DNA of 64,000 bases from an uncultured Methylibium sp. (GTDB taxonomy: Bacteria; Pseudomonadota; Gammaproteobacteria; Burkholderiales; Burkholderiaceae_C). The notes under the pieces are model-generated. The model saw nothing but the letters and a program-made list of their open reading frames with translations. It ran no database searches and was not told where the DNA came from. The stretch is from the NCBI RefSeq assembly GCF_902826655.1, contig NZ_CADEFR010000008.1, positions 43,346 through 107,345 on the forward strand, in the 5' to 3' direction. Shown here in pieces: positions 3,976 to 39,843 of this stretch (position 1 is the first letter of the stretch; every line of letters starts with the position of its first letter). The position numbers and the translations under genes were made by a program.

Positions 3976-4002
3976 GCATCCGCCGCGGCGGGATGTCCGT
4001 AG
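3976..4002 (+). promoter_or_regulatory. Predicted ECF (SigK-type) promoter for the DUF4394 lipoprotein
   Basis: GCATCC (3976-3981) and CCGTAG (3997-4002) are separated by 15 bases, 74 bases before the lipoprotein start. The promoter described for mycobacterial SigK is CCATCC then CCGAAT with a 16-17 base spacer, so five of six and four of six bases agree. The same pair with a 16-base spacer lies before the DUF3455 gene at 38427. The sigma factor encoded downstream at 5790 is the natural candidate. Spacer length is slightly short, and no experimental support can be seen from sequence. Confidence 0.5.
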
Positions 4003-4017
4003 TCCCCGACATGCGAA

Positions 4018-4042
4018 CCCGATCGGCCGAAAGGCCGTCGGG
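4018..4042 (+). other. GAAA-capped hairpin in the lipoprotein leader
   Basis: CCCGA(T)CGGCC and GGCCGTCGGG form a 10-bp stem with one bulged T, closed by a GAAA tetraloop at 4029-4032. It would sit about 10 bases from the predicted transcript start and 34 bases before the start codon. No T tract follows, so a role in mRNA stability or translation is more likely than termination. The role is inferred. Confidence 0.5.
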
Positions 4043-4075
4043 CTCTTGTGTCATCGACCACGGAGACTTCCCGCC

Positions 4076-5698
4076 ATGCATCGCAAGACCCTGCTCGCCA
4101 CCGTTGCCGCCTTCGCTCTCGGGGGCCTCGCTGCCTGCGGTGGCGGAGGCGATGCGCCGCCGCCGGCACCGCAACCGGTGGCGGTCGGCGACACCGTCGC
4201 GCTGACCGCCAGCGGCCGCATCGTCTCGTTCAACCGCGCGACGCCGGCCACGCTGGTCGGCGCGGTGTCGGTCACCGGCCTCGCCTCGGGCGAGACGCTG
4301 CTCGGCATCGACATCCGTCCGGCCGACGGCCTGCTGTACGCGCTGGGCAGCGCCGGCAACATCTACACGATCGTGCCGTCGACCGGCGCGGCCACGCTGC
4401 GTGTCGCGCTGCGCGCCGCGGCCGGTGACGACAACCCTTACGCCGCGCTGGTCGGCGACAGCTTCGCCGTCGACTTCAATCCGGCCGCGGACCGCCTGCG
4501 CGTGATCGGCAACCTGGGCCAGAACCTGCGCATCAACGTCGCCACCGGCGACACCATCACCGACGGCCTGATCGCACCGGCCGCCGGCGGCACCGCGACG
4601 GTCAGTGCCGGCGCCTACACCAACAGCTTCGCGGGCACGACGACGACCCAGCTCTTCGACCTGGACGTGGTCGCCGGCACGCTGCACCTGCAGGACCCGC
4701 CGAACAACGGCACGCTGGCCGCCGGCCTGCCGCTGGGCGTGACGGCGACCGCGGCCAACGGCTTCGACATCGACGCGCGCAACAACACCGGCTACGCCGC
4801 ACTGACGGTCGGCGGCACGACCTCGCTGTACACCGTCAACCTCACGACCGGCGCCGCGACCGCCGTGGCCGGCGGCGCGATCGCCGGCGGCGAAGCGATC
4901 CGCGGGCTGGCGCTGGTGCAGCCGGCCGCGCCCACGGCCATCGGCCTGACCGCCGACAACCGCCTGCTGGCCTTCAACCCGGCGGCGCCGAACACCATCA
5001 CCTCCACGACCACCATCACCGGCCTGCAGACCGGCGAAGTGATCCTCGGCATCGACGTGCGGCCGGGTAACGGCCTGCTCTACGCGCTGGCCACCGGCGG
5101 GCGGCTCTACACCGTCGACCCGGCCACCGGCGCGGCGACCTTCCGTGTCGCGCTGGCCGCCGATCCGGCCGACGCGACCGCGCCCTACAGCGGCCTCGCG
5201 AGCAACGCGCTCAGCGTCGACTTCAACCCGGCCGCCGACCGCCTGCGCGTGATCGCCGACAACGGCCAGAGCCTGCGCATCAACGTCGACACCGGCCTCA
5301 CCACGACCGACGGCGACATCAACCGCGTCGGCGTCGCGCCCTCGGTGCTGGCTGCGGCCTACGCCAACAGCTTTGCCGGCACGACGACGACGGTGCTCTA
5401 CGACCTGGAGGCCGCCAGCAACGTGCTGGCGATCCAGAACCCGCCGAACAACGGCACGCTGGTCGACGTCGGCGCGCTCGGCCTCGACATCGCCGGCAGC
5501 GGCGGCTTCGACATCGCGGGCGGCGGCAACGGCCTCGCGCTGGCGGCGCTGCGGGTCGGCACGACCGGCCCGATGTCGCTGTACGCCGTCAACCTGACCA
5601 CCGGGGCCGCGACCTTCTATCGCGGCCTGGCGGCCGACGCGGCGCAGATCGGCGGCGCCGGCGGCGTGCCGCTGGTCGACCTGGCGATCCGCTTCTGA
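4076..5698 (+). CDS. Lipoprotein with two tandem DUF4394 domains
   Basis: Protein of 540 residues. A lipoprotein signal peptide ends at LAAC with Cys21 as the predicted lipidated residue, followed by a Gly/Pro linker. Two DUF4394 units follow at about residues 37-288 and 293-540. Both contain LLGIDIRP/ILGIDVRP, VDFNPAADRLRVI, LRINV, the DPPNNGTL/NPPNNGTL motif and LYxVNLTTGAAT, so they arose by duplication. DUF4394 has no known function; the pattern of short repeated strands suggests a beta-propeller-like fold. The ECF sigma and anti-sigma genes follow directly, and a matching promoter lies upstream, so it is probably a target of that sigma factor. The start at 4076 is chosen for the lipobox. 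Confidence 0.82.
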   Translation: MHRKTLLATVAAFALGGLAACGGGGDAPPPAPQPVAVGDTVALTASGRIVSFNRATPATLVGAVSVTGLASGETLLGIDIRPADGLLYALGSAGNIYTIVPSTGAATLRVALRAAAGDDNPYAALVGDSFAVDFNPAADRLRVIGNLGQNLRINVATGDTITDGLIAPAAGGTATVSAGAYTNSFAGTTTTQLFDLDVVAGTLHLQDPPNNGTLAAGLPLGVTATAANGFDIDARNNTGYAALTVGGTTSLYTVNLTTGAATAVAGGAIAGGEAIRGLALVQPAAPTAIGLTADNRLLAFNPAAPNTITSTTTITGLQTGEVILGIDVRPGNGLLYALATGGRLYTVDPATGAATFRVALAADPADATAPYSGLASNALSVDFNPAADRLRVIADNGQSLRINVDTGLTTTDGDINRVGVAPSVLAAAYANSFAGTTTTVLYDLEAASNVLAIQNPPNNGTLVDVGALGLDIAGSGGFDIAGGGNGLALAALRVGTTGPMSLYAVNLTTGAATFYRGLAADAAQIGGAGGVPLVDLAIRF

Positions 5699-5709
5699 TC
5701 ATGGCGAGG

Positions 5710-5743
5710 CGGCCGACGTGGTCTGCGACGGCCACGTCGGCCG
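5710..5743. other. Perfect 12-bp hairpin between lipoprotein and sigma genes
   Basis: CGGCCGACGTGG (5710-5721) and CCACGTCGGCCG (5732-5743) are exact reverse complements with a 10-base loop, 12 bases after the lipoprotein stop and 46 bases before the sigma start. No T tract flanks it on either side. It could lower read-through or protect the upstream mRNA end, or it could be a protein-binding site. Confidence 0.6.
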
Positions 5744-5789
5744 GGCCGCCGGCTCGGCTAGGATCGCGTCCGACCCGCCCCGCCGCCCC

Positions 5790-6353
5790 ATGCCCAGCCC
5801 GACGAGCACTTCCCCCGATGGCTTCGACTACGAGTCGGCGCTCGAGGCCTGCGCGCGCGGCGAGCGCTACGCGCTGCGCGCCCTCTACGAGCGCGAGTCG
5901 CGCTGGCTGCTGGGCGTGGCGCAGCGCATCGTGCGCGACCGCGACACCGCGCACGACGTGCTGCAGGAGGCCTTCCTGCAGGTCTGGCAGCGCGCATCGA
6001 CCTACCAGCGCGCGCTGGGCTCGGGGCGCGGCTGGATCTACACCGTGGTGCGTCACCGCGCGCTGGACGAGGCGCGCCGCGTGCAGCGCGAGATGCCGGC
6101 CGGCGACGACCTCGAGGCCGTCGCCGATGCGCACGCCGCGCTCGAGCCCGCGCCCGACCTGCCGCACGCCGACGCCGCGGCGCTGGACCGCTGCCTGTCC
6201 GCACTGGAGGAGCGCAAGCGCGACTGCATCGTGCGCGCCTTCGTCGAGGGCTACACGCACGAGCAGATCGCTCGCGAGATCGCCACGCCGGTCGGCACCG
6301 TCAAGTCGTGGATCCGCCGCGGGCTGCTGTCGCTGAAGGAGTGCCTGTCGTGA
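5790..6353 (+). CDS. ECF sigma factor, SigK-like
   Basis: RNA polymerase sigma factor of 187 residues with only regions 2 and 4. Region 2 is at about residues 20-95 (with DTAHDVLQEAFLQVWQRA) and region 4 at about 130-187 (EGYTHEQIAREIATPVGTVK, then SWIRRGL). The overlapping downstream gene is a RskA-type anti-sigma factor, which points to the SigK/ECF19 class. The start at 5790 follows the usual sigma N-terminus; an ATG at 5718 in the same frame would add 24 unrelated residues and run through the hairpin. Its likely targets include the lipoprotein gene just upstream. Confidence 0.88.
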   Translation: MPSPTSTSPDGFDYESALEACARGERYALRALYERESRWLLGVAQRIVRDRDTAHDVLQEAFLQVWQRASTYQRALGSGRGWIYTVVRHRALDEARRVQREMPAGDDLEAVADAHAALEPAPDLPHADAAALDRCLSALEERKRDCIVRAFVEGYTHEQIAREIATPVGTVKSWIRRGLLSLKECLS

Positions 6354-7084
6354 GCCTCGATCAGGATCCGCAGGAACGCAGCGCCACCGCCGGCGAGTAC
6401 GTGCTCGGCACGCTCGATGCCGCGACGCGCGCCGAGGTCGATCGGGCCCTGCCTGCCGACGCGGCGCTGCAGGCCGAGGTCTACCGCTGGCAGGACCGCC
6501 TGCTCGGCCTGACGCGCCGCGTCGCGCCGGCCGAGCCCGACGCCGGCCTGTGGCCCAAGATCGCCGCACGGCTGGGCGCCGCGCCCGCGGCACGACCGGC
6601 CGCCGCGCCCGCCGCCGCCAACGACCCGCTGTGGCAGCGCCTGCGCCGCTGGCAGCTCACCGGCGGCCTGGCGATCGCGGCTTCGATGGTGCTGGCCACG
6701 CTGCTGGTGCTGCGCGCGCCGACCGCGGTCGATGCGCCGGTGCGCTACCTCGCGGTGCTGCAGGCGCCCGACAACCAGACCGCCGGCTGGGTCGTCGAGA
6801 TCACCGCCGGCGACAAGCTGCGCCTGGTGCCGGTGGCGGCGGTCGCGGGGCAGCCGGTGCCCGCCGGCAAGACGCTGCAGTTCTGGACCAAGCCCGAAGG
6901 CGCGGCCGGCCCGACCTCGCTGGGCCTGGTGCGCGCCGGCCAGACCGTCGAGCTGCCGGTCGGCCAGCTGCCGGCGGTCGAGGCCAGGACGCTCTTCGAG
7001 CTGACCCTCGAACCCGAAGGCGGCTCGACGATCGGACGGCCGACGGGGCCGATCCTGTACGTGGGGCGCACCGTCAAGCTCTGA
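6350..7084 (+). CDS. RskA-type anti-sigma factor
   Basis: Membrane anti-sigma factor of 244 residues starting with GTG at 6350, which overlaps the sigma stop by 4 bases (GTGA), a sign of translational coupling. The cytoplasmic N-terminus has the RskA pattern GEYVLGTLDAATRAEV. One membrane segment lies near residues 104-121 (LAIAASMVLATLLVL). The outer C-terminal domain resembles RskA (PF10099) and ends with GRPTGPILYVGRTVKL. It should hold the upstream sigma factor at the membrane until proteolysis releases it. The second anti-sigma protein in this window, at 38533, has the same GxPTGPIL end motif. Confidence 0.85.
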   Translation: MSLDQDPQERSATAGEYVLGTLDAATRAEVDRALPADAALQAEVYRWQDRLLGLTRRVAPAEPDAGLWPKIAARLGAAPAARPAAAPAAANDPLWQRLRRWQLTGGLAIAASMVLATLLVLRAPTAVDAPVRYLAVLQAPDNQTAGWVVEITAGDKLRLVPVAAVAGQPVPAGKTLQFWTKPEGAAGPTSLGLVRAGQTVELPVGQLPAVEARTLFELTLEPEGGSTIGRPTGPILYVGRTVKL

Positions 7085-7144
7085 TTCACCTTGCTTGCTT
7101 GCGCGGCGCGGGCAGCGAAACCGACTGGGGCGCTGTACTGCGCT

Positions 7145-7370
7145 CATGTCCCCCGGGGCGGGCGATGCCCGTCCCTCCTCCTTTACTTCGCTCCGTACAA
7201 CGCCCCAGCCGGCTTCGCTGCTGGCATCGCTCTGGCCGCTCGGAGGCCTGCAATGCTGCGGCGGTGGAAGGTCGAGGGCAGTGGGTGACCGGCGCAGTGA
7301 AGTAAAGGAGGAGGCCGGGCGCAGCCCGGTCGGAGGACATGAACGGAGCCGGTCACCCGCTGTCCTCGAC
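7145..7370. repeat. Compound inverted-repeat region in a 320-bp gene-free gap
   Basis: The gap 7085-7404 has no convincing gene. It holds two related segments in opposite orientation, about 7145-7194 and 7297-7341. They share CATGTCC...GGGC, a GC-rich centre and the 14-base TCCTCCTTTACTTC block, which is read as GAAGTAAAGGAGGA in the second copy. The second copy is enclosed by a 23-bp inverted repeat, 7271-7293 with 7348-7370, with two mismatches, and contains an inner CCGGGC/GCCCGG stem. The layout resembles dispersed REP/BIME-like elements. Copy number elsewhere in the genome cannot be seen here. Confidence 0.6.
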
Positions 7371-7404
7371 CCGCGCGACCGACGTCACACAGTAGCGAGG
7401 AGGC

Positions 7405-7737
7405 TCAAGGCTCCTTCACTTCGACCTTCAACGACGCATACCAGGCCGCCAGCGCCGCGATGTCGGCATCGCTCAGGTACTGGGCGACGACGTTCATCAC
7501 CGGGTGCTGGCGCGCACCGCTGCGGTAGGCCTTGAGCTGGGCCTCGACGTAGATCGCTGGTTGTCCGGCGAGGTTCGGCGCGTCCGGCAACGTCGCCAGG
7601 CCCAGCCGGCCATGGCAGGCGGAGCAGGCGGCCGACTTGGTACGGCCCGCTTCGTTGGCCTGGGCCGCTGGTACCGCGGCGCTGATCAACAGCGCCGCGA
7701 TCCAGCACCAGGTCCTAGCGCTTCGCGTCGCCCACAT
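7405..7737 (-). CDS. Small periplasmic cytochrome c (class I)
   Basis: Protein of 110 residues with an N-terminal signal-like hydrophobic stretch (WCWIAALLISAAVPAAQA) and one haem-binding motif CSACH, followed by a typical distal NVVAQYLSDADIAALAAWYA segment that supplies the class I fold. It overlaps the end of the sugar dehydrogenase gene by 23 bases on the same strand, so the two are probably co-expressed, and it may accept electrons from that enzyme. The start could also be at 7770, which adds 11 residues; 7737 gives the more usual signal peptide, but neither has a clear ribosome site. Confidence 0.78.
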   Translation of the reverse strand: MWATRSARTWCWIAALLISAAVPAAQANEAGRTKSAACSACHGRLGLATLPDAPNLAGQPAIYVEAQLKAYRSGARQHPVMNVVAQYLSDADIAALAAWYASLKVEVKEP

Positions 7738-8992
7738 AGCTGATGCGGTAGATCGCGCCGACGTAGTCATCGGAGACGAGCAGCGAGCCGTCCTTCATCG
7801 TCGCCACGTCGACCGGGCGGCCGCGGAAGGTGCCGGTGTTCTCGTCGAGCCAGCCGCTCGCGAAGACCTCGGTCTTGTCGGCCGTGCCGTCGGCCTTGAG
7901 CGAGGTGAACAGCACCTGCGCGCCGTTGGGCTTGGTGCGGTTCCACGAGCCGTGCTGCGCGCTGAAGAAGCCGCCCTGGTACTTGGCCGGGAAGGACTTG
8001 CCGGTGTAGAAGGCCATGCCCAGGTCGGCCGCATGCGCTTCGGTCAGCACCTGGGCCGCGGTCACGTTGGTCGGCAGCGGGTCCTTGTCGTAGCCGTGGT
8101 CGGTGATGCGGGTCTTGCCCTGGATCCACGGGTAGCCGAAGAACTGGCCCGCCTTGGTGATGCGGTTGATCTCGCCGTTGGGGATGTCGTCGCCCATGCC
8201 GTCGGTCTGGTTGTCGGTGAACCAGAGCGTGCCGTCCTTGGGGTTGAAGTCGTGGCCGACCGAGTTGCGGATGCCGGTGGCGTAGACCTCGCGCTTGCTG
8301 CCGTCGAAGGCGTTCATGCGCACCATGCCGCCGATGCCGACCTCGTTGAAGATCTTGAGCTTGTCGCGCGGCTGCACGTTGAAGGGCTGGCCCAGCGAGA
8401 TGTAGACCATGCCGTCCGGCCCGATCTTGCAGACCCGCGCGCCGTGGTTGAAGGACTCTTCCTCCACCGGGATCAGCTTGCCCTGCGGCACGACCTCGAT
8501 CACCGCGACGTCCGGGCCTTCGTAGAAGAACTCGGCGGCGGGGAAGTTGAGCACGCGGTTGTGCTCGGCCACCAGCAGGAAGCCGTCCTTGGTCCAGCAC
8601 ACGCCGTTGGGCACCTTGAAGTTGAGGCTGGGCGCGAAGGCCTTGACCTCGTCGGCCTCGCCGTCGGAGTTGCGGTCGGTCACGGCCCACACCGTGGTCT
8701 TGCGGGTGCCGACGAAGAGCATGTTGGTGCTGGGCGCCACGGCCATGTGGCGCGCGTCGGGCACCACCGCGAACAGGTCGATGCGAAAGCCCGGCGGCAG
8801 CTTCACGCGCTCGAGGTTCCTGCGGATCGCGTCGGCGTTCTTGCCGGTCTGCGGCACCGGCGGGATGTTGAGGTCCACGCCGGACACCTTGAACTGCTTG
8901 AGCTTCTCGATGTTCTGCTGGGCCAGCGCGGGTCCGGCGGACAGCAGGGCGGCCGCGACGGCCGTCAGCGTGAGGCGGGCGAAGGGATGCAT
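7715..8992 (-). CDS. PQQ-dependent sugar dehydrogenase (sorbosone dehydrogenase-like)
   Basis: Periplasmic protein of 425 residues with a clear signal peptide ending near residue 24 (LLSAGPALA-QQ). The rest matches the glucose/sorbosone dehydrogenase beta-propeller family, including HMAVAPSTNMLFVGTR, a basic NHGARV motif, RNSVGHDFNP, LWFTDNQTDGMGDD and QHGSWNR. Soluble members use PQQ to oxidise sugars, but many relatives have no assigned substrate, so only the general class is safe. The overlapping cytochrome c gene downstream fits a periplasmic electron-transfer pair. A GGAGA ribosome site lies before the start. Confidence 0.83.
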   Translation of the reverse strand: MHPFARLTLTAVAAALLSAGPALAQQNIEKLKQFKVSGVDLNIPPVPQTGKNADAIRRNLERVKLPPGFRIDLFAVVPDARHMAVAPSTNMLFVGTRKTTVWAVTDRNSDGEADEVKAFAPSLNFKVPNGVCWTKDGFLLVAEHNRVLNFPAAEFFYEGPDVAVIEVVPQGKLIPVEEESFNHGARVCKIGPDGMVYISLGQPFNVQPRDKLKIFNEVGIGGMVRMNAFDGSKREVYATGIRNSVGHDFNPKDGTLWFTDNQTDGMGDDIPNGEINRITKAGQFFGYPWIQGKTRITDHGYDKDPLPTNVTAAQVLTEAHAADLGMAFYTGKSFPAKYQGGFFSAQHGSWNRTKPNGAQVLFTSLKADGTADKTEVFASGWLDENTGTFRGRPVDVATMKDGSLLVSDDYVGAIYRISYVGDAKR

Positions 8993-9304
8993 GGGGTGGG
9001 TCTCCTTGAATCGTTCTTGGATAAGGAAGGCGGTGCGGCGGGTGGCCGGTCGCCGGGCGGCTGCCGATCGGTCGGGCGGATGGCAACCGGCTGCCGACTG
9101 TAGGCCGGGGGGCCGGCTCCGGCACGGCCCCCCGGGTTACCCCGGACGCCGGCGCGGGCAGGCGGTGCCCCGTCCATTCCACGCTTTCCGCCGTCCGTCG
9201 CACGGCCCTGCCGACGCCGGGTGGCCGGGCTTTAGAGTGGCGCCCGGCGCCGACCGGTGCCCACCCCACAACGCAAGCGGTCACCGCCGCGAGGAGTCTT
9301 GATC
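8993..9304. other. Divergent gene-free gap with a strong hairpin
   Basis: This 312-bp gap separates the divergent sugar dehydrogenase and M13 peptidase genes and has no credible coding frame. It contains a perfect 10-bp hairpin, CCGGGGGGCC (9105-9114) with GGCCCCCCGG (9126-9135), 11-base loop and no T tract. A TTTAGAGT element near 9231-9238 is a possible -10 for the peptidase gene, without a recognisable -35. Confidence 0.5.
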
Positions 9305-11350
9305 GTGAGTATTTCCTGCAAGCCCCGCCGGGCGCTGGCCCTCGGCGTCGTCGGCGCCGCCGTCGCGCTGGCCGTCCTGGCCCCCGTCCATGCCCAGCCG
9401 GCCGCGTCCGGCGTCGAGCAGGCCAACGTCGACCGCGCCGTGCGCATCCAGGACGACTTCTACCGCCACGTCAACGGCAGCTGGCTCAGGAACACGCCGA
9501 TCCCGGCCGACCGCGCCAGCACCGGCGCCTTCAACCAGATCCACGACGCCATCCAGCCGCAGCTGCTGGGCCTGATCGAGGAGGCGGCGAAGAGCGGCCG
9601 CGACGCCGAGGCGCGCCAGATCGGGGACCTGTACGCCAGCTTCATGGACGAGGCCACCGTCGAGAAGCTGGGCCTCAGGCCGATCGCCGCCGAGCTGGCC
9701 GCGGTCGACGCGCTGACCGACCGCAGGCAGCTCGGCGCGCTGATGGCGCGCTCGGTGCGTGCGGGCATCGGCATGCCGGTGGCCTTCTATGTCGGCCAGG
9801 ACGACAAGGACTCGACGCGCTACGCGACCTTCCTGTCGCAGAGCGGCCTGGGACTGCCCGACCGCGACTACTACCTGAAGGAAGACGACGCGCGCTTCAA
9901 GGACATCCGCGCCAGGTACCTGGACCACCTGCAGAAGATGCTGGCGCTGGCCGGCGACAAGGACGCCGCCGCGTCGGCGGCCGCCGTGCTGGCGCTGGAG
10001 ACCGAGCTGGCCCGCGTGCAGTGGACCAAGGTCGAGAACCGCGACCCGGTGAAGACCTACAACAAGGTCGAAGTCGACGCGCTGCCGAAGCTCGCGCCCG
10101 CGATCGACTGGAACGCCTTCCTCGCCGGCACCGGCGTGGCGGGCAAGGCCGGCTACGTGATCATCGGCCAGCCGAGCTACTTCGAGGGCCTGTCGAAGCT
10201 GGCCGAGACGGCGCCGTTGCCGGCGTGGAAGGCCTACGCCAAGGTGCGTGTGCTGAATGCCTACGCGCCCTTCCTGAACAAGGAGATGGTCGACACGCGC
10301 TTCGCCTTCGCCGGCACCGTGCTGCGCGGCACGCCCGAGAACCTGCCGCGCTGGAAGCGCGGCGTCGCGCTGGTCGAGGACTCGGTCGGCGAGGGCCTGG
10401 GCAAGCTCTACGTCGCGAAGTACTTCCCGCCGTCGCACAAGGCGCGCATGGAGAGCCTGGTCGCCAACCTGATGCTCGCCTACCGGCAGAGCATCGACAA
10501 GCTCGACTGGATGACGCCGGCCACCAAGGCGCAGGCCCAGGCCAAGCTCGCGAAGTTCACCACCAAGATCGGCTACCCGAAGCAGTGGCTGGACTACCGC
10601 TCGCTGAAGATCCAGCGCGACGACCTGGCCGGCAACGTGCGGCGCGCGCGCGAGTTCGCGCACGAGCGCCTGGTCGACAAGCTCGGCAAGCCCATCGACC
10701 GCGACGAGTGGCTGATGACGCCGCAGACGGTCAACGCCTACTACAACCCGGGCCTCAACGAGATCGTGTTCCCGGCCTCGATCCTGCAGCCGCCGTTCTT
10801 CAACGCGGCGGCCGACGAGGCGGTCAACTACGGCGGCATCGGGGCGGTGATCGGCCACGAGATCAGCCACGGCTTCGACGACCAGGGCAGCCAGTACGAC
10901 GGCGACGGCAACCTGCGCAACTGGTGGACCGCCGAGGACCGCGCGCGCTTCGCGGCCAGGACCGAGGTGCTGATCGCGCAGTACGGCGCCTTCGAGCCGG
11001 TGCCCGGCTACAAGCTCAACGGCAAGCAGTCGCTGGGCGAGAACATCGCCGACAACTCCGGCCTCGAGATCGCCTACAAGGCCTACCAGCTGTCGCTGGG
11101 CGGCAAGCCGGCGCCGACGATCGACGGCCTGAGCGGCGACCAGCGCTTCTTCTACGGCTTTGCGCAGATCTGGCGCAGCAAGGAGCGCGAGGCCGCGCTG
11201 ATCGAGCGCGTGAAGGCCGGCGTGCACTCGCCGTCGGAGTTCCGCGCCAACGGCGCGGTGCGCAACCATCCGGCCTTCTACACGACCTTCGACGTGAAGC
11301 CGGGCGACGCGATGTACCTGCCGCCGGCGCAGCGCGTGTCGATCTGGTAG
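9305..11350 (+). CDS. M13-family zinc metallopeptidase (PepO/neprilysin-like)
   Basis: Endopeptidase of 681 residues, the usual size for M13. The zinc site is visible: His518-Glu-Ile-Ser-His522 (VIGHEISHGFDD) and Glu579 in ENIADNSG. The substrate-binding motif NAYYNP is also present. An N-terminal signal peptide (LALGVVGAAVALAVLAPVHA) makes it a secreted or periplasmic oligopeptidase. The GTG start at 9305 is chosen because GAGGAG lies 8 bases before it; TTG at 9299 is too close to that site, and an ATG at 9257 would put a basic extension before the signal. Confidence 0.93.
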   Translation: MSISCKPRRALALGVVGAAVALAVLAPVHAQPAASGVEQANVDRAVRIQDDFYRHVNGSWLRNTPIPADRASTGAFNQIHDAIQPQLLGLIEEAAKSGRDAEARQIGDLYASFMDEATVEKLGLRPIAAELAAVDALTDRRQLGALMARSVRAGIGMPVAFYVGQDDKDSTRYATFLSQSGLGLPDRDYYLKEDDARFKDIRARYLDHLQKMLALAGDKDAAASAAAVLALETELARVQWTKVENRDPVKTYNKVEVDALPKLAPAIDWNAFLAGTGVAGKAGYVIIGQPSYFEGLSKLAETAPLPAWKAYAKVRVLNAYAPFLNKEMVDTRFAFAGTVLRGTPENLPRWKRGVALVEDSVGEGLGKLYVAKYFPPSHKARMESLVANLMLAYRQSIDKLDWMTPATKAQAQAKLAKFTTKIGYPKQWLDYRSLKIQRDDLAGNVRRAREFAHERLVDKLGKPIDRDEWLMTPQTVNAYYNPGLNEIVFPASILQPPFFNAAADEAVNYGGIGAVIGHEISHGFDDQGSQYDGDGNLRNWWTAEDRARFAARTEVLIAQYGAFEPVPGYKLNGKQSLGENIADNSGLEIAYKAYQLSLGGKPAPTIDGLSGDQRFFYGFAQIWRSKEREAALIERVKAGVHSPSEFRANGAVRNHPAFYTTFDVKPGDAMYLPPAQRVSIW

Positions 11351-11390
11351 CCGACAGGGAGGGCGCGCCGATCTGCACAAGAATCGGCGC

Positions 11391-12878: not shown

Positions 12879-12908
12879 AATGCGGCCCGCGCCCCGCCAA
12901 CGCCTGCC

Positions 12909-31481: not shown

Positions 31482-31483
31482 GC

Positions 31484-31984: not shown

Positions 31985-32394
31985 ACCGCGAGGCCTTGCT
32001 CGCGCTGCTGGAGCGCGAGTCCGAGTTCACCGCGGTGCGCGCGCAGGGCGCCGGCGGGCAGAACGTCAACAAGGTGTCGAGCGCCGTGCACCTGCGCTTC
32101 GACGTGCCGGCCTCGTCGCTGGGCGAGGCCCACAAGGCGCGGCTGCTGGCGCTGCGCGACCAGCGCCTCACCGACGAAGGCGTGATCGTCATCAAGGCGC
32201 AGGAGCAGCGCACGCAGGCGCGCAATCGCGAGGACGGGCTGCAGCGCTTGCTGGAGTTGGTGGCGAGCGTGGCGACGCCGCCGCGCAAGCGCGTTGCCAC
32301 GAAGCCCAGCCTCGGAGCCAAGCGGCGCCGGCTCGAAGGCAAGAGCGCACGCGGCGAGGTCAAGCGGGCCCGGGCCAAGGTCACCGGGGACTAG
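31981..32394 (+). CDS. arfB: Ribosome-rescue peptidyl-tRNA hydrolase ArfB
   Basis: Protein of 137 residues (YaeJ family). The catalytic GGQ is at residues 25-27 in QGAGGQNVNKVSSAVHL, and the C-terminal tail is very basic (KRRRLEGKSARGEVKRARAK), as needed to enter the empty mRNA channel of stalled ribosomes. It hydrolyses peptidyl-tRNA on non-stop complexes. The GTG start at 31981 overlaps the preceding stop. It is followed after 16 bases by radA. Confidence 0.93.
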   Translation: MNREALLALLERESEFTAVRAQGAGGQNVNKVSSAVHLRFDVPASSLGEAHKARLLALRDQRLTDEGVIVIKAQEQRTQARNREDGLQRLLELVASVATPPRKRVATKPSLGAKRRRLEGKSARGEVKRARAKVTGD

Positions 32395-32410
32395 CACGCA
32401 CAATCTCCGC

Positions 32411-33772: not shown

Positions 33773-33785
33773 TGCCGGGATCGCC

Positions 33786-34598
33786 ATGCGCGTAGCCGCG
33801 CTGTCCGACATCCACGGCAACCTGCCGGCGCTGGAGGCCGTGCTGGCCGAGGTGGCGCGCCTGGGTGCCGACGTCGTCGTCAACCTCGGCGACATCGTCA
33901 GCGGTCCGCTGTGGCCGCGCGAGACGGCGCAGCGGCTGATGGCGCTGGACCTGCCGACCATCGCCGGCAACCACGAGCGCCAGCTGCTGACGACGCCGCG
34001 CGAGCGGCAGTCTGCGAGCGACGCTCACGCTGCAGCCGCGCTGGGCGAGTCAGAGCGCGGCTGGCTGCGCGGCCTGCCGGCGGCATGCCGCCCTGCCGAC
34101 GACGTGGCCTGTTGCCACGGCACGCCGGCGAGCGACCTGCACTACCTGCTGGAGACGGTGACGGCCGGCTTCGGCATCGAGGGGTCGCGCGGCGTGCGTG
34201 CGGCGAGCCTCGACGAGGTGACGGCGCGCTGCGCCGGCGTCGACGCCGGCCTGCTGCTGTGTGGGCACAGCCATGTACCGCGTGCGCTGCGGCTGGCGGG
34301 CGGGATGCTCGTCGTCAACCCGGGCAGCGTCGGGCTGCAGGCCTACGACGACGACCAGCCGGCGGAGCACTGGGTCGAGATCGGCAGCCCGCATGCACGC
34401 TGGGCGCTGATCGAGCGCCCGCGACCCGGTGCCGACTGGAACGTGGCGCTGATGGCCACCGCCTACGACTGGGAAGCTGCGGCGCGGCAGGCCGAGCGCA
34501 ACGCGCGCGGCGACTGGGCCGATGCCCTGCGGACCGGCCGCGTCGGGCGGACCGGGCGCGAGGCGCGCGCCACGCAGGCAGGGGCCGCACCGGCATGA
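33786..34598 (+). CDS. Metallophosphoesterase (YfcE/MJ0936-like)
   Basis: Protein of 270 residues with the binuclear-metal phosphoesterase motifs in order: SDIHGN (residues 7-12), NLGDIVSGP, AGNHERQLL, CCHGTP and CGHSHVPRAL, followed by VNPGSVGLQAY. It is likely a cytoplasmic phosphodiesterase; some relatives act on cyclic nucleotides or nucleotide alarmones. The C-terminal 30 residues are Arg/Ala-rich and probably disordered. It overlaps the next gene by 4 bases (ATGA). Confidence 0.87.
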   Translation: MRVAALSDIHGNLPALEAVLAEVARLGADVVVNLGDIVSGPLWPRETAQRLMALDLPTIAGNHERQLLTTPRERQSASDAHAAAALGESERGWLRGLPAACRPADDVACCHGTPASDLHYLLETVTAGFGIEGSRGVRAASLDEVTARCAGVDAGLLLCGHSHVPRALRLAGGMLVVNPGSVGLQAYDDDQPAEHWVEIGSPHARWALIERPRPGADWNVALMATAYDWEAAARQAERNARGDWADALRTGRVGRTGREARATQAGAAPA

Positions 34599-35014
34599 GC
34601 CGCGGCTGGATCGCCTGGGTGCTGGCGGTGGCGGCGATCGGCGCGGGTCACGCGTCGTATGGCTGGCCGGGTGTCGCGCTGGCCGGGACCGTGATCGTGT
34701 TCTGGCTGCTGCTCGACTTCAGCCGCGCGATGCGTGCGATGCGGCGCGCCGCGACGGCACCCAAGGGCAGCGTGCCGAGCGCCGTGATGCTGGCGGCCCG
34801 CTTGCGACCCGGCATGACGATGGTCGACGTGCTGCCGCTGGCGGGCAGCCTGGGCGAGCCGGTGAGCGGGGTCGCCGGGGAGCACTACCGCTGGACGGAT
34901 GCCGGTGGCAGTGCGGTCGTCGCGATCTTCGGCGGCGCGCGTCTGCAGTCCTGGGACTTGCAGCGCCCTGAAACGAACGAAGGACCCGATGAGGGCCCTT
35001 CGCGGACGGCTTGA
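34595..35014 (+). CDS. Small membrane protein with a BamE/SmpA-like tail
   Basis: Protein of 139 residues that I do not recognise as a named family. Two hydrophobic segments occupy about residues 5-45. The C-terminal part, LRPGMTMVDVLPLAGSLGEP followed by YRWTDAGGSAVVAIFGGARL, has the spacing of SmpA/BamE-like domains (a GMT...V...LG.P start, an aromatic-D-GG strand and a final W). This may mean an outward-facing domain of that fold. It overlaps the phosphoesterase gene and is likely co-expressed with it. Confidence 0.6.
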   Translation: MSRGWIAWVLAVAAIGAGHASYGWPGVALAGTVIVFWLLLDFSRAMRAMRRAATAPKGSVPSAVMLAARLRPGMTMVDVLPLAGSLGEPVSGVAGEHYRWTDAGGSAVVAIFGGARLQSWDLQRPETNEGPDEGPSRTA

Positions 35015-35030
35015 GTGGAGGCGACTCGCG

Positions 35031-35423
35031 CTACTGTCCGCTGCGGCGCCGTGCCATGAAGCCGACCACGCCCAGCCCGGCGAGGATCAGGGCGTAGGTG
35101 TGCAGTTCCGGCACGGGTGACGTGCTGGCCTCGAAGGCGACACCCTCGCTCGCGTCGTCGCCAGGGAGGACCGCGGCGCCCTGGAGACTGAGCATCCGGA
35201 AGGAGCCCATCGCATCCGCAGAGACCGGGGTCGTTGTCGAGAAGGGCGAACGGCCGGCATCGACATCGGTCGGCGTCGCGGAGCGGAGCTCGGCCGTACC
35301 AGCGAAGCTGTCGACGCCCATCCAGGACGGCGTCGGGGCCGCGGCTTCGGGTTGCGCCTGAACCAGGCCGACGAACAGCAGGTTCGACAGCAGGCTCAGC
35401 AGGATCTTGGGCAGAGGCTTCAT
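35031..35423 (-). CDS. Secreted PEP-CTERM-like protein with a PEL variant
   Basis: Protein of 130 residues. A signal peptide (LLSLLSNLLFVGLVQA) starts at the ATG at 35423. The C-terminus has the layout of a PEP-CTERM sorting signal: VPELHTYALILAGLGVVGF, then MARRRSGQ. The usual Pro-Glu-Pro is Pro-Glu-Leu here, while the hydrophobic helix and basic tail are intact. The body is Ser/Thr/Ala-rich without a known domain. Such proteins are processed by exosortase in species making exopolysaccharide; no exosortase gene is in this window. No strong ribosome site is visible. Confidence 0.7.
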   Translation of the reverse strand: MKPLPKILLSLLSNLLFVGLVQAQPEAAAPTPSWMGVDSFAGTAELRSATPTDVDAGRSPFSTTTPVSADAMGSFRMLSLQGAAVLPGDDASEGVAFEASTSPVPELHTYALILAGLGVVGFMARRRSGQ

Positions 35424-35630
35424 GGGCGAGAAGGAGCGTCCGGTCGGACTGGCATCCAGCAGCACGGGTGGCTGCGGAGGAGGTGAACTTATGCGCCGCC
35501 ATGCGCCGCAGCAATCCCCCATCGGGGTCCAACCCCCGCGATCCGGGGGGCGCCGACGGGCAGGCTGTGACCGGCAGGCCACAGTCCGCGGACTCGTAGA
35601 ATTTGCGCTCTTTCGAACCGGGGAACTGCG

Positions 35631-36566
35631 ATGTCGATGTCCGACCGTGACGGCAAGATCTGGATGGACGGCGAGCTCGTCGACTGGCGCGACGCCAAGA
35701 TCCACGTGCTGAGCCATACGCTGCACTACGGCTGTGGCGCCTTCGAGGGAGTGCGCGCTTACAACACGGTCAAGGGCACGGCGATCTTCCGCTTGCGCGA
35801 GCACACCGAGCGCCTGTTCAACAGCGCCAAGATCCTGCGCATGAAGATTCCCTTCTCGCTGGAGCAGGTGATGGACGCCCAGCGCGCGGTGGTCAGGGCC
35901 AACCAGCTGGAGAGCTGCTACCTGCGTCCGCTGACCTGGATCGGCGACCAGAAGCTGGGGGTCAGCCCCAAGGGCAACACCATCCACCTGATGGTCGCGG
36001 CCTGGGCCTGGGGCGCCTACCTCGGCGAAGAGGGCCTGAAGCGCGGCATCCGCGTCAAGACCAGCAGCTACACCCGCCACCACGTCAACATCACGATGAC
36101 GCAGGCCAAGGCGGTCAGCAACTACACCAATTCCATCCTCGCCAACATGGAAGCCACCGACGACGGCTACGACGAGGCCCTGCTGCTGGACGCATCGGGT
36201 TTCGTCTCCGAAGGCGCGGGCGAGAACCTGTTCGTCATCAAGAACGGCGTGGTCTACACCCCCGACCTGTCGGCCGGCGCGCTGAACGGCATCACGCGCA
36301 ACACCGTGTTCGCGATCTGCCAGGACCTGGGCCTCAAGCTGGTCGAGAAGCGCATCACCCGCGACGAGGTCTACATCTGCGACGAGGCCTTCTTCACCGG
36401 CACGGCTGCGGAAGTGACGCCGATCCGCGAGCTGGACCGCATCGAGCTGGGCGCCGGCTCCTACGTGGGCACACGCGGCCCGATCACCGAGAAGATCCAG
36501 TCGGCCTTCTTCGACATCGTCAACGGCCGCAACCCCAAGTACGCCGAATGGCTGACCGCGGTCTGA
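35631..36566 (+). CDS. ilvE: Branched-chain amino-acid aminotransferase
   Basis: Class IV PLP aminotransferase of 311 residues for the last step of leucine, isoleucine and valine synthesis and the first of their breakdown. Lys160 in QAKAVSNYTNS is the PLP-binding lysine, at the same number as in E. coli IlvE. Other marks are HYGCGAFEGVRAY, YLRPL and FFTGTAAEVTPI. A TAGAAT element (35597-35602) is a likely -10, 29 bases before the start. The zinc-finger gene follows after 5 bases. Confidence 0.96.
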   Translation: MSMSDRDGKIWMDGELVDWRDAKIHVLSHTLHYGCGAFEGVRAYNTVKGTAIFRLREHTERLFNSAKILRMKIPFSLEQVMDAQRAVVRANQLESCYLRPLTWIGDQKLGVSPKGNTIHLMVAAWAWGAYLGEEGLKRGIRVKTSSYTRHHVNITMTQAKAVSNYTNSILANMEATDDGYDEALLLDASGFVSEGAGENLFVIKNGVVYTPDLSAGALNGITRNTVFAICQDLGLKLVEKRITRDEVYICDEAFFTGTAAEVTPIRELDRIELGAGSYVGTRGPITEKIQSAFFDIVNGRNPKYAEWLTAV

Positions 36567-36571
36567 GCGCC

Positions 36572-36772
36572 ATGAACGAACCCAAGGCCGTCGTCGAGGT
36601 CACTGCCGCGGACCTGCAAGGTCCGGGCGTGGTGTTCTGCCCGAACCCGAAGATGCCGCTGTGGAGCAACCACCCGCGCGTCTTCATCGCCGTCGCCGAT
36701 GGCGAGGGCAAGTGCCCGTACTGCGGCACGGTCTATCGCCTCCAGGCCGGCGAGAAGCTGCACGCGCATTGA
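36572..36772 (+). CDS. Zinc-finger protein, zf-CHCC type
   Basis: Protein of 66 residues with the CHCC zinc finger: Cys in VVFCPNP, His in SNHPRVFI, and the Cys pair in KCPYCGTVYRL. The family is related to the NDUFS6 subunit of complex I. In Burkholderiales it commonly follows ilvE. The start at 36572 is preceded by the ilvE stop; a longer frame from 36548 overlaps ilvE and lacks a ribosome site. Function in bacteria is unknown. Confidence 0.88.
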   Translation: MNEPKAVVEVTAADLQGPGVVFCPNPKMPLWSNHPRVFIAVADGEGKCPYCGTVYRLQAGEKLHAH

Positions 36773-36812
36773 TGCGCCTGCGCTGACGCCCCCGCCCGGC
36801 CGCGTCGCTGCG

Positions 36813-37847
36813 ATGACCCGCTCGCTCGTCATCGCGCCGCAATGGATCGGCGATGCCGTGATGGCCGAGCCCCTGCTGGCGGCGCTGGCCGCACGCGGCG
36901 AGCAGCTCACGGTCGCGGCCCTGCCGTGGGTGGCCCCGGTGCTGCGCGCGATGCCGCAGGTCGGCGCCGTGATCGACGTGCCTTTCGCGCATGGCAAGCT
37001 CGACTGGGCGGCTCGCCGCGCGCTCGCCCGCACGTTGAAGGATCGCTTCGACGCGGCCTACGTGCTGCCGAACTCGCTGAAGTCCGCGCTGGTGCCGTGG
37101 CTCGCGCGCGTGCCGCGCCGGGTCGGCTACCAGGGCGAGGGCCGCTTCGTGCTGCTGAACGAGCGCACCGCCAACCCGGTCGGCAAGCCGCCGATGGTGG
37201 ACTTCTACGGCGCCCTGGCCGGTGGGCTGCCGGCCGGCGCACGGCCCCGGCTGCAGATGGCGGCGTCGGCCATCACGACGGCGCTCGGTCGTCTGGACCT
37301 CGAACCCGGCAGCTACTGGGTGTTCGCCCCCGGCGCCGAGTACGGCGCGGCCAAGCGCTGGCCGGCGCCGCACTACGCCGCGCTGGCGCGGCAGCTCCAG
37401 GAACTCCATGGGCTGCCGGTGCTCTTGCTCGGTTCGGCCAAGGAGGCGCCGATCTGCGAGGAGATCGCCGCCCTGGCGCCCGGCGCCTGCCGCGTGCTGG
37501 CGGGCCGCACCTCGCTCGACGACGCGATGGCGCTGATCGCTGCGGCACGCGGCGTGGTCAGCAACGATTCCGGCCTCATGCACGTGGCGGCCGCCTTCGG
37601 CAAGCCGCAGGCGGCCGTGTTCGGATCCACCAGTCCGCAGCACACGCCGCCGCTCAATCCGCGCGCGCGCGTGCTGTGGCTCAAGACGATGCGGGGCGAG
37701 GCCGAGCTGGACTGCCAGCCCTGCTTCGAGCGCGACTGTCGCTACGGCCATCTGCGCTGCCTGGTCGACATCCGGCCCGAGCGCGTCGACGCCGCGCTAG
37801 GCGACGCGCTCGCGAAGGCGGCCAGCGAGACGCCTGCCGCGATCTGA
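36813..37847 (+). CDS. waaF: LPS heptosyltransferase II
   Basis: Glycosyltransferase (GT9) of 344 residues that adds the second heptose to the lipopolysaccharide inner core at the inner membrane. Marks are VIAPQWIGDAVMAEPLL at the N-terminus, FAPGAEYGAAKRWP, and the ADP-heptose-binding SNDSGLMHVAAAFGKP. The C-terminal CQPCFERDCRYGHLRCL cluster is typical of WaaF. The start at 36813 is the family start; the open frame upstream overlaps the zinc-finger gene. Confidence 0.93.
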   Translation: MTRSLVIAPQWIGDAVMAEPLLAALAARGEQLTVAALPWVAPVLRAMPQVGAVIDVPFAHGKLDWAARRALARTLKDRFDAAYVLPNSLKSALVPWLARVPRRVGYQGEGRFVLLNERTANPVGKPPMVDFYGALAGGLPAGARPRLQMAASAITTALGRLDLEPGSYWVFAPGAEYGAAKRWPAPHYAALARQLQELHGLPVLLLGSAKEAPICEEIAALAPGACRVLAGRTSLDDAMALIAAARGVVSNDSGLMHVAAAFGKPQAAVFGSTSPQHTPPLNPRARVLWLKTMRGEAELDCQPCFERDCRYGHLRCLVDIRPERVDAALGDALAKAASETPAAI

Positions 37848-37872
37848 GACCCGGGCCGGGGTCGGACGTCGA

Positions 37873-38427
37873 TCAGCGACCGTAGAACACGTAGTCGGCG
37901 GCGTAGCTGACGATCTTCTTCTCGCCCTTGTTGGCCTCGGCGCAGGCCTGGGCGGGTGCGACACCGCCGACGGTCTTCAGGCGCTGGATGTAGCTCACGC
38001 CCTGCATCACGCCGTTGCCGGTCGCCGGGTCGGCCTTCACCAGTTGCAGCGGAATGCTGCCCGGCGTGCCCGCGTTGGGCGCCACCGCGACCTGCTTGCC
38101 GACGACGCGCGAACCGTCGCTGGAGACCCAGGTGGCCGGCGGACCGAAGTAGCTGCCGACCTCCTTGCCGCTCGCGTCCTTGAGCTTCGCGACCGGGCCG
38201 ACGAAGACCCATTCGTGCTGGCCGGCCATGTCCTTCTTGTCGCGGCATTCGTAGGTGATCTGGCCGGCGTCGGTGGTGGTCCACAGCTTCTGGCTTTCGC
38301 CGGCCGGGACGCGCACGGCTTCGGGCAGGGCGGCGTTGTCGACCTTCATCGATGCCGTCGGCATGCCGCTGCAGGCGGCGAGGCCCAGGGCCAGGGCAGC
38401 GGTGCCCAGCGTCAGGGGGGTGTGCAT
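37873..38427 (-). CDS. DUF3455 lipoprotein or secreted protein
   Basis: Protein of 184 residues. A lipoprotein signal with LAAC places the lipidated Cys at residue 19. The mature part is a DUF3455 domain (VPAGESQKLWTTTDAGQITY, GSYFGPPATWVSSDGSRVVG, GVSYIQRLKTVGGVAP). Function is unknown; fungal and bacterial relatives are secreted. It follows the sigma/anti-sigma genes on the same strand, 105 bases downstream. Its leader carries the same predicted promoter as the DUF4394 lipoprotein gene, so it is probably a target of a SigK-like factor. AAGGAG precedes the start. Confidence 0.85.
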   Translation of the reverse strand: MHTPLTLGTAALALGLAACSGMPTASMKVDNAALPEAVRVPAGESQKLWTTTDAGQITYECRDKKDMAGQHEWVFVGPVAKLKDASGKEVGSYFGPPATWVSSDGSRVVGKQVAVAPNAGTPGSIPLQLVKADPATGNGVMQGVSYIQRLKTVGGVAPAQACAEANKGEKKIVSYAADYVFYGR

Positions 38428-38479
38428 AGCGAGTTCTCCTTGGATGACTTGCGCGAAGGCCCATGCCTTCTGCCATCCA

Positions 38480-38507
38480 CTACGGGACGGACCGCCCGCG
38501 CGGATGC
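38480..38507 (-). promoter_or_regulatory. Predicted ECF (SigK-type) promoter for the DUF3455 gene
   Basis: On the minus strand GCATCC (38507-38502) and CCGTAG (38485-38480) are separated by 16 bases, 52 bases before the DUF3455 start. It matches the element at 3976-4002, including a shared TGCATCCGC at the -35 and CCGTAGT at the -10. The resemblance to the SigK consensus makes the sigma factor at 39223-39843 or the one at 5790 the candidate. Confidence 0.5.
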
Positions 38508-38532
38508 ACCCCTGGAGGCACGCCGATCGAGA

Positions 38533-39219
38533 TCAGATCTGCAGCTTGCCGACCGACAGGATCGGCCCGGTCGGCGCGCCGGTCGGCGAGCCGCCGCTCG
38601 GCTCGAGGCTCACCGCGAAGGCCGCGGTGTCCTTCAGCAGCAGCGCGCGCTGCACCGTGGTCGCCTGCTGGCCGGAGACCAGGCCCAGCGAGCGCGGCGC
38701 CCCCTGCGGCGGCACCGCCCACAGCTCGAAGGCGCGTCCCGCACCGGGCGCGACCGCCTGGATCGGCTGCAGCACCAGCGCCCGGCCGTCGCGCGTGAGG
38801 CCGGCCGCGAAGCCGGCCTGCAGCACGCCGGCGGCTTCGGGGTTGGGGGCGATCACGATCACGATCGGCGGCTGGACCGGTTGCGGCTGCGACAGCACCA
38901 GGCCGAAAGCCAGCGCCGCCACCGTCGCGAACGCCGACACGCCCTGCCACAGACCCAGCTTCTGCCACCAGCGCAGCGGCGCGGCTGCGCTGGCGAACAG
39001 CCGTTGCTCGACCCGCGACCACACCGTGGCCGACGGCTGCACCGGCGTCACTGCCGCACTCAGCGGGATCAGCCGCGCCTGCCAGGCCGCCACGGCGGCG
39101 CGCAGGGCCGGGTGGGCCGGCAGCAGCGACTCGAAGCGGCGCCGCGCCGGTCCGCGCAGCGTGCCGAGCACGTGCTCGGCCGCCAGGCGGTCGACGAGGG
39201 AAGGGCGGCCGTAGTCCAT
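38533..39219 (-). CDS. RskA-type anti-sigma factor (second copy)
   Basis: Membrane anti-sigma factor of 228 residues. The cytoplasmic part has LAAEHVLGTLRGPARRRFESLL, a membrane segment lies near residues 93-109 (FATVAALAFGLVL), and the outer domain ends in GAPTGPILSVGKLQI. It is a paralogue of the protein at 6350-7084, with the same order and ending but low identity elsewhere. It starts 3 bases after the sigma stop, which implies coupled translation with its sigma partner. Confidence 0.85.
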   Translation of the reverse strand: MDYGRPSLVDRLAAEHVLGTLRGPARRRFESLLPAHPALRAAVAAWQARLIPLSAAVTPVQPSATVWSRVEQRLFASAAAPLRWWQKLGLWQGVSAFATVAALAFGLVLSQPQPVQPPIVIVIAPNPEAAGVLQAGFAAGLTRDGRALVLQPIQAVAPGAGRAFELWAVPPQGAPRSLGLVSGQQATTVQRALLLKDTAAFAVSLEPSGGSPTGAPTGPILSVGKLQI

Positions 39220-39222
39220 GCT

Positions 39223-39843
39223 TCAGGTTGCGGTGCCGTGGGCCCGCTCCAGGCAGCCCCTCAGCGAGATCAATGCCCGCCGCACCCAGCTCTTCACGGT
39301 GCCGAGCGGCTGCTTCAGGTGGTCGGCCACCTCGGCGTGCGACAGGCCCTGGTAGAAGGCCAGCGCGAGACTCTGCTGCTGCTCGCCGCTCAGGGCCTTC
39401 ATGCAGCCCTGAAGCGCGCGCGCATCCGCGGCCTGGCCCAGCAGGTCGAGCGGGCCGGCATCGGGGGAAGCGAAGTCCTGCAGCATGTCGTGTTCGTCGT
39501 CGTCGCCCAGGCCCACCGAGGTGCTGACGGTCTGCGGCTCGCTCTGGCGCCGGCGCAGGCTGTCGATCGCCCGGTTGCGGGCAATGCTGGTCAGCCAAGT
39601 GAGAGGCTGGCTCAGCGTGGCATCGAAGCCCTGCGCGGCGCGCCAGACGTTCACGTAGACCTCCTGCAGCACGTCCTCGGCCTGGGCCCGGTCTTTCTGG
39701 ATACGCAGCACGACGCCCAGCAGATGCGAGCTGGTGCGCTGGTAGAGCGTGGCAAATGCCGCACGATCGCCGAGTGCCACACGCGACAGCACCGCGGCGA
39801 GTTCGCGGCTGCGTTCGGTCCAGTCCTGGGGCGAGGTGGCCAT
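39223..39843 (-). CDS. ECF sigma factor, SigK-like (second copy)
   Basis: Sigma factor of 206 residues with region 2 (KDRAQAEDVLQEVYVNVWRA, about residues 55-75) and region 4 (QGLSHAEVADHLKQPLGTVK, then SWVRRALISL). It is a paralogue of the sigma factor at 5790. Region 4 differs enough that promoter recognition could be overlapping but not identical. The start at 39843 is preceded by a TAGAAT (39856-39861 on the minus strand), a possible housekeeping -10. An anti-sigma gene and the DUF3455 gene follow on the same strand. Confidence 0.9.
   Translation of the reverse strand: MATSPQDWTERSRELAAVLSRVALGDRAAFATLYQRTSSHLLGVVLRIQKDRAQAEDVLQEVYVNVWRAAQGFDATLSQPLTWLTSIARNRAIDSLRRRQSEPQTVSTSVGLGDDDEHDMLQDFASPDAGPLDLLGQAADARALQGCMKALSGEQQQSLALAFYQGLSHAEVADHLKQPLGTVKSWVRRALISLRGCLERAHGTAT

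What the first reader, a model, noticed from the sequence alone, without database searches (positions are those of the whole stretch)
3976..39843. Twin SigK/RskA modules, each with a lipoprotein gene carrying the same ECF-type promoter
Two ECF sigma/anti-sigma pairs (5790-7084 plus strand; 39843-38533 minus strand) are paralogous. Each anti-sigma ends with GxPTGPIL. Each pair adjoins a gene for an uncharacterised lipoprotein (DUF4394 at 4076, DUF3455 at 38427). Both lipoprotein leaders contain GCATCC, a 15/16-base spacer and CCGTAG (3976-4002; 38507-38480). This resembles the mycobacterial SigK promoter (CCATCC-N16/17-CCGAAT). The motif, positions and spacing are seen. The SigK comparison is known. 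The claim that the two sigmas share a small lipoprotein regulon, possibly cross-talking, is inference.
Basis: partly seen in the sequence, partly recalled or inferred. Interest (0 to 1): 0.72.

Follow-up and report, generated by a model that had tools for sequence, protein, structure and literature searches.

The report
Lipoprotein promoters of twin SigK-like switches

Summary
GCATCC-N15-CCGTAGT and GCATCC-N16-CCGTAGT begin 100 and 80 bases before a DUF4394 and a DUF3455 lipoprotein gene. The strict pattern occurs twice in this (by inference Methylibium) genome, at these two places. A relaxed form gave 13 hits against 0 control hits in six genomes of the genus; 10 of 13 precede sigA, DUF4394-sigA or DUF3455. 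An unbiased dyad count before 80 DUF3455 genes of named genomes put ATCC-N16-CGTA first, in 50 of 80. 61 of those 80 lie within 4 kb of a gene of such a sigma/anti-sigma pair. The plan of the first module equals the known mpt83-sigK-rskA cassette with another cargo; fasciclin genes of these genomes carry the motif no more often than shuffled DNA (2 of 30 fetched). The two sigmas belong to separate clades, so they are not a recent duplicate. The sigA operon looks autoregulated. DUF3455 beside sigB has an A-type -10, so sigA may drive it; sharing or cross-talk is suggested, not shown.

The parts
3976..3981 (+). -35 box GCATCC of the putative DUF4394-sigA-anti-sigA operon promoter
   Evidence: similar boxes before DUF4394-sigA in G011 and G038
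3997..4003 (+). -10 box CCGTAGT, 15 bases after the -35 box
4076..5698 (+). lipoprotein gene with two DUF4394 domains; first gene of the putative operon
   Evidence: PF14339, 462 bits, 2 stretches; lipobox by reading
5790..6353 (+). sigA: SigK-like ECF sigma factor, clade A
   Evidence: (4nqw Mtb SigK best, E 4.8e-22)
6350..7084 (+). anti-sigA: RskA_C anti-sigma factor; GTG start overlapping the sigA stop (start by reading)
   Evidence: PF10099 75.4 bits
39223..39843 (-). sigB: SigK-like ECF sigma factor, clade B
   Evidence: (4nqw best, E 2.1e-31)
38533..39219 (-). anti-sigB: RskA_C anti-sigma factor
   Evidence: PF10099 73.4 bits
38502..38507 (-). -35 box GCATCC between anti-sigB and the DUF3455 gene
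38479..38485 (-). -10 box CCGTAGT, 16 bases after the -35 box
37873..38427 (-). DUF3455 lipoprotein gene; AlphaFold2 model rich in beta strands, barrel-like by its matches
   Evidence: PF11937 111 bits; Cys19 invariant in 40 of 40 aligned; mean pLDDT 90.3

Best explanation
These are two SigK-like ECF sigma/RskA-like anti-sigma switches whose targets are envelope lipoproteins of the DUF4394 and DUF3455 families instead of the fasciclin lipoprotein of the mycobacterial and Yersinia cassettes. G(C/A)ATCC-N15/16-(C/G)CGTA is their promoter (shown as a conserved, positioned motif; transcription not shown). Normally the membrane anti-sigma holds its sigma factor. An envelope signal, probably with a thiol redox input through the conserved cysteine pair, frees it by regulated proteolysis (inferred from SigK/RskA). 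Freed sigA transcribes its own operon from the promoter before DUF4394 (or directly before sigA where no DUF4394 gene precedes it), so lipoprotein and switch rise together; sigA and/or sigB also transcribes DUF3455 from the promoter between anti-sigB and DUF3455.
For: Strict pattern: 2 hits in the genome, both here, 0 control. Genus: 13 against 0 control hits in 6 genomes: 4 before sigA, 1 before DUF4394-sigA, 5 before DUF3455, 2 before homologous nSTAND1-type genes, 1 before a Crp-like gene. The genus genome without RskA_C and DUF3455 matches (G002, a 540-contig assembly) has 0 hits. Dyad count: ATCC-N16-CGTA first, 50 of 80; best dyad in one shuffled set 10 of 80; 32 of 80 upstream regions within 2 mismatches of the window consensus against 1 reversed, 3 opposite strand, 0.65 per shuffled set. 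With a neighbouring clade-A pair 23 of 24 rows have the motif, clade B 20 of 20, divergent (clade C) 19 of 31, shuffled 5.3%. Where DUF4394 or DUF3455 precedes sigA the motif precedes the lipoprotein gene and not sigA; where sigA is first it precedes sigA. RskA_C co-occurs with DUF3455 (29 of 34 genomes against 16 of 66, p 7e-9) and DUF4394 (21 of 26 against 24 of 74, p 2e-5). Cys pair in 92 of 93 sigmas. Fasciclin genes: motif 2 of 30, shuffled 6.7%.
Against: No transcript start or binding was measured. The loose pattern is not enriched in the genome (7 against 11) and allowing 2 mismatches gives mixed results (N15 121 against 71; N16 54 against 180). Outside the genus the strict variant is not enriched (18 hits against 17 control over 94 genomes). 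Of 31 divergent rows 12 lack the motif at my threshold. Of fetched DUF4394 loci away from a sigma gene 7 of 19 carry it where RskA_C is in the genome and 2 of 5 where it is not; the loci of the other five genus genomes (L012, L013, L018, L021, L025) do not. Among DUF3455 loci with a sigma gene within 1.5 kb 11 of 14 carry it by the stricter window. Counts are rows; some rows are the same or close genomes, and the Fisher tests ignore kinship apart from a one-per-genus version.
Confidence: 0.85

Rival explanations
1. Insulated twins: sigA acts only on its own operon and sigB only on DUF3455; the promoters look alike because SigK-like factors of this order keep a similar -35/-10 preference.
For: Rows of each clade share the core ATCC-N16-CGTA; DUF3455 sits next to clade B, C or A pairs in different genomes; sigA and sigB differ in region 2.
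Against: In the genus both modules have CCGTAGT (DUF3455: 6 of 6 rows, 5 genomes), whereas clade B rows elsewhere end in GTAGT in 5 of 14 and divergent clade C rows in 0 of 19. sigB has no motif before its own gene here.
Confidence: 0.35
2. sigA alone reads both promoters; DUF3455 is a sigA target that happens to lie beside sigB, and sigB has other targets.
For: CCGTAGT before DUF3455 in all five genus genomes that have both modules; in other genera DUF3455 precedes a sigA-type gene (14 of 80 loci); sigB upstream lacks the motif.
Against: A locus named Methylibium rhizosphaerae (L197, contig too short to show a sigma gene) has CCGTATG, not CCGTAGT.
Confidence: 0.25
3. The two boxes are an operator for an ordinary transcription factor, not an ECF promoter, or a chance resemblance.
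For: No transcript start is known; the loose pattern is not enriched.
Against: Fixed orientation, 15/16-base spacing, place before the first gene of the operon including the sigma gene itself, copies before both the sigma gene and DUF3455 in many divergent loci, and 0 hits in the genus genome where the system was not found (G002).
Confidence: 0.04

Closest known systems
mpt83-sigK-rskA cassette of mycobacteria and Yersinia enterocolitica (Veyrier et al. 2020, PMC7509140; abstract and passages seen)
   Same: Lipoprotein gene, SigK-like sigma gene and RskA-like anti-sigma gene in one row with the sigma site before the lipoprotein gene; conserved cysteine pair in the sigma; RskA_C domain in the anti-sigma; best solved relative of both sigmas is Mtb SigK.
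[quoted passage not shown] PMC7509140)
   Same: RskA-type anti-sigma beside an ECF sigma factor with the cysteine pair.
   Different: Group assignment was not testable here; the curated NCBIfam SigK cut-off is not reached.

Membership tests
SigK/RskA switches (ECF18/19 kind) | ECF sigma factor of two domains, sigma2 and sigma4 | tested here: met
SigK/RskA switches (ECF18/19 kind) | anti-sigma gene next door with RskA_C domain over its cut-off | tested here: met
   75.4 and 73.4 bits, cut-off 29.4
SigK/RskA switches (ECF18/19 kind) | cysteine pair at the positions of Mtb SigK Cys133 and Cys183 | tested here: met
   alignments to 4nqw; 92 of 93 relatives; numbering from PMC7509140
SigK proper (NCBIfam PRK09646 subfamily) | score over the curated cut-off 226 | tested here: not met
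   sigA 120.5, sigB 160.3 bits
NCBIfam NF052375 anti-sigma factor | score over the curated cut-off 100 | tested here: not met
   93.7 and 99.2 bits, both just under
mpt83-sigK-rskA cassette | lipoprotein-sigma-anti-sigma order with promoter before the lipoprotein gene | tested here: met
   first module; the second module has sigma-anti-sigma-lipoprotein order
mpt83-sigK-rskA cassette | fasciclin-domain cargo | tested here: not met
   (DUF4394, DUF3455); 30 fetched fasciclin loci of the relatives carry the motif in 2 and have one weak sigma-like neighbour
SigK/RskA switches (ECF18/19 kind) | release by regulated intramembrane proteolysis and redox control | not testable with these tools
   needs experiment
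ECF19 group | membership by the ECF classification models | not tested
   models not on hand; the 2021 classification paper is not held

The most novel reading that the evidence does not exclude
Two anciently separate SigK-like factors have converged on one promoter sequence in this genus, so that two anti-sigma sensors feed one lipoprotein regulon (a two-input OR gate) in which DUF3455 beside sigB is switched mainly by sigA, and the order-wide regulon is a cargo-swapped SigK cassette for oxidative or halogen stress at the envelope, as hinted by DUF3455 domains fused to vanadium-chloroperoxidase-like proteins.
Probability: 0.28. Interest if true: 0.62.

Novelty: new variant of a known kind. 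Interest (0 to 1): 0.5.

Why it matters
It gives two protein families of unknown function (DUF3455, and less firmly DUF4394) a likely regulator, a promoter and a test, in an order where RskA_C anti-sigma factors are common (45 of 100 relatives) and for which no study stood out in the papers listed by my searches. It suggests that the SigK cassette keeps its wiring while the lipoprotein it controls is exchanged, and offers a natural case for asking how two related sigma factors in one cell keep apart or share a promoter.

Tried and rejected
Strict pattern over 100 relatives: enriched only in the genus (8 against 0), 18 against 17 elsewhere, of which one (G011) is a DUF4394-sigA leader. Local duplication of the two modules: rejected by the tree (midpoint root; the tool warns that the long branches of L165 and L161 may join clade A falsely). 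Rows dropped before that tree: 7 of 97 (four fragments under 180 residues, three second copies). Fasciclin as the cargo: rejected for these genomes (two of 30 loci, L303 and L304, do carry a good motif). Positions used were checked. GxPTGPIL as a link between the two pairs: family trait. Structure search for DUF3455: no PDB match at E 0.001 or better; the best are small beta-barrel cyclases at about 3e-3 with TM-scores up to about 0.43, so no function is claimed. Kinase and Crp-like genes with a near-perfect motif in the own genome: conservation not tested. Shuffles keep base composition only, those keep dinucleotides; the dyad control is one shuffled set. In one search four rows with a neighbouring sigma or anti-sigma gene (L048, L061, L064, L195) had been left in the class 'no sigma near' (64 rows, 37 with the motif). 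Literature: DUF4394 in 0 papers of the held library; DUF3455 in 9, eight of them on fungi by title; a search for the SigK promoter sequence found no paper holding it.
Full report
WHAT IS THERE. The window lies in a 4.22 Mb draft genome. The first module reads promoter, DUF4394 lipoprotein, sigA, anti-sigA, all on the + strand; the second reads sigB, anti-sigB, promoter, DUF3455 lipoprotein on the - strand. The coordinates of the finding are right. A third SigK-like sigma/RskA_C pair lies elsewhere in the genome (C1, L072:4946-6270).

IS THE MOTIF MORE THAN CHANCE. The strict form GCATCC-N15/16-CCGTAGT occurs twice in the genome, both times here, with 0 control hits. In the six genomes held for the genus the form GCATCY-N15/16-SCGTAGT gives 13 hits against 0 control. 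I placed all 13: 4 directly before sigA (G001, G003, G004, G005), 1 before DUF4394-sigA (own genome), 5 before DUF3455 (own, G001, G003, G004, G005), 2 before homologous genes (G004, G005; 69% identical; nSTAND1 domain tested in one), 1 before a Crp-like gene (own genome). The one genus genome without RskA_C and DUF3455 matches, G002, has none. Outside the genus the strict form is not enriched: 18 hits against 17 control in 94 genomes.

UNBIASED TEST. Counting all pairs of four-base words 13-20 bases apart in the 80 upstream regions, ATCC-N16-CGTA (that is, xxATCC-N15-xCGTA) came first, in 50 of 80; the best pair in one dinucleotide-shuffled set reached 10. Mismatch counts to the window consensus: 32 of 80 within two mismatches, against 1 of 80 reversed, 3 of 80 on the opposite strand and 0.65 per shuffled set.

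ARRANGEMENTS. In those 80 loci the DUF3455 gene has a sigma or anti-sigma gene of this kind in the stretch held (up to 4 kb each side) in 61: divergent in 31, after sigma-anti-sigma in 12, before a sigA-type gene in 14, before a sigB-type pair in 4; 19 have none (some loci are cut by contig ends). The tree of 90 sigma sequences splits them: clade A (sigA of the genus and of G011 and G038) with its sister clade of DUF3455-sigA operons; clade B with sigB; clade C, mostly Comamonadaceae factors of the divergent loci. Clade A with its sister stands apart on a long, well supported branch (100/99), and clade B is supported on its own, so sigA and sigB are old separate lines. The root is only a midpoint, and the tool warns that two long rows (L165, L161) may join clade A falsely.

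PROMOTER BY CLADE (rows, not independent genomes). Clade A neighbours: motif in 23 of 24, -35 GCATCC (22) or GCATCT (1), ending GTAGT in 18 of 23. Clade B in the genus: 6 of 6 rows (5 genomes), all CCGTAGT. Shuffled: 5.3%. A contrary row: the locus named Methylibium rhizosphaerae (L197, contig too short to show neighbours) has CCGTATG. The sigma gene's own upstream region carries the motif in 3 of 6 clade A rows (the other three have DUF4394 first), 0 of 18 of the DUF3455-sigA clade (DUF3455 is first), 5 of 24 clade B rows (4 without upstream DNA) and 31 of 49 others. So the motif marks the first gene of the operon, as autoregulation predicts, and sigB of this genome is not visibly autoregulated. 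DUF4394 and DUF3455 genes of one genome, though unlinked, can show the same variant (G016: GCATCC-N15-GCGTAGG in both; G058: N16 in both, though a second DUF4394 gene there lacks the motif; G038: GCATCT-N16 in both).

CO-OCCURRENCE AND CONTROL CARGO. Over 100 relatives RskA_C is present in 29 of 34 genomes with DUF3455 and 16 of 66 without (p 7e-9), and in 21 of 26 with DUF4394 and 24 of 74 without (p 2e-5); with one genome for the own genus p is 9e-8 and 1e-4. Kinship is not otherwise corrected. Of the fetched loci, DUF3455 genes without a sigma gene within 1.5 kb carry the motif in 8 of 13 where the genome has RskA_C and 1 of 4 where it has not; DUF4394 genes in 7 of 19 and 2 of 5. So for unlinked DUF4394 genes the tie is weak, and the fetched DUF4394 loci of the other five genus genomes lack the motif: in the genus the DUF4394 link rests on this genome, supported by G011 and G038 where DUF4394 also precedes sigA (3 of 3). 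Fasciclin genes, the cargo of the known SigK cassettes, carry the motif in 2 of 30 fetched loci (shuffled 6.7%) and have one weak sigma-like neighbour in 30.

MECHANISM. Both sigmas have M. tuberculosis SigK (4nqw) as best solved relative and keep the cysteine pair that PMC7509140 reports as redox-responsive and needed for activity (passages); 92 of 93 relatives keep it. The sigma4 helix that should meet the -35 box is nearly the same in sigA and sigB (PVGTVKSWIRR and PLGTVKSWVRR), the sigma2 part differs more, in line with a shared -35 and a clade-dependent -10. Proteolytic release, the signal and the redox input are inferred from SigK/RskA. What the lipoproteins do is unknown. Clues: DUF3455 is predicted with confidence as an all-beta fold (mean pLDDT 90.3) without a convincing solved relative; longer proteins fuse DUF3455 to a vanadium-chloroperoxidase-like part (VCPO_2nd) in 3 of 3 that I tested, one in this genome, and these lack the motif; two DUF3455 genes of Delftia acidovorans were 20-fold higher on soybean roots at day 7 than at day 2 (PMC7725335, passage; their neighbours were not looked at).

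COMPARISON. PMC7509140 describes an mpt83-sigK-rskA minimal cassette with a SigK site before the lipoprotein gene, also in Yersinia (passages). The first module here has the same plan with another lipoprotein; the second has the lipoprotein last with its own promoter. Neither sigma reaches the curated SigK cut-off, so I call them SigK-like. In the held library no paper holds the term DUF4394 and none of the 9 holding DUF3455 is on its regulation by title; the main ECF classification paper is not held, and it may list this context and motif.

VERDICT. Observation confirmed; promoter and lipoprotein regulon strongly supported by comparison for DUF3455 and sigA, more narrowly for DUF4394; sharing of the regulon by the two sigmas plausible and testable, not shown.

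Noticed in passing
L071:2436-4076 (own genome, C34): A second DUF3455 domain is fused to a vanadium-chloroperoxidase-like protein (VCPO_2nd); the same fusion in L055 and L068. These forms lack the motif.
   Followed up: partly
L072:4946-6270 (own genome, C1): A third SigK-like sigma/RskA_C pair; long branch near clade B; no such motif before it.
   Followed up: partly
window 5711-5742: A 13-bp hairpin with a 6-base loop and no T run between DUF4394 and sigA; might lower sigA relative to the lipoprotein. Folding z-score of the stretch only -1.65.
   Followed up: partly
L103 (G000:C9:14484) and L102 (G000:C8:42030, 1.3 kb before the window): Motif with one base off CCGTAGT before a Crp-like gene and before a protein kinase gene that also has a cyclic-nucleotide-binding domain; conservation not tested.
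   Followed up: no
L191 and L096: Motif before homologous nSTAND1-type genes in two species of the genus; the gene was not found in the other four genomes.
   Followed up: partly
L303 (G044) and L304 (G048): Two fasciclin genes do carry a good motif (GAATCC-N16-CCGTATT, GCATCC-N15-GCGTACA), possibly relics of the fasciclin cassette.
   Followed up: no
L015 and L048 (G038): Both modules of this genome share the rarer GCATCT and 16-base spacer, as if the two promoters drifted together.
   Followed up: no
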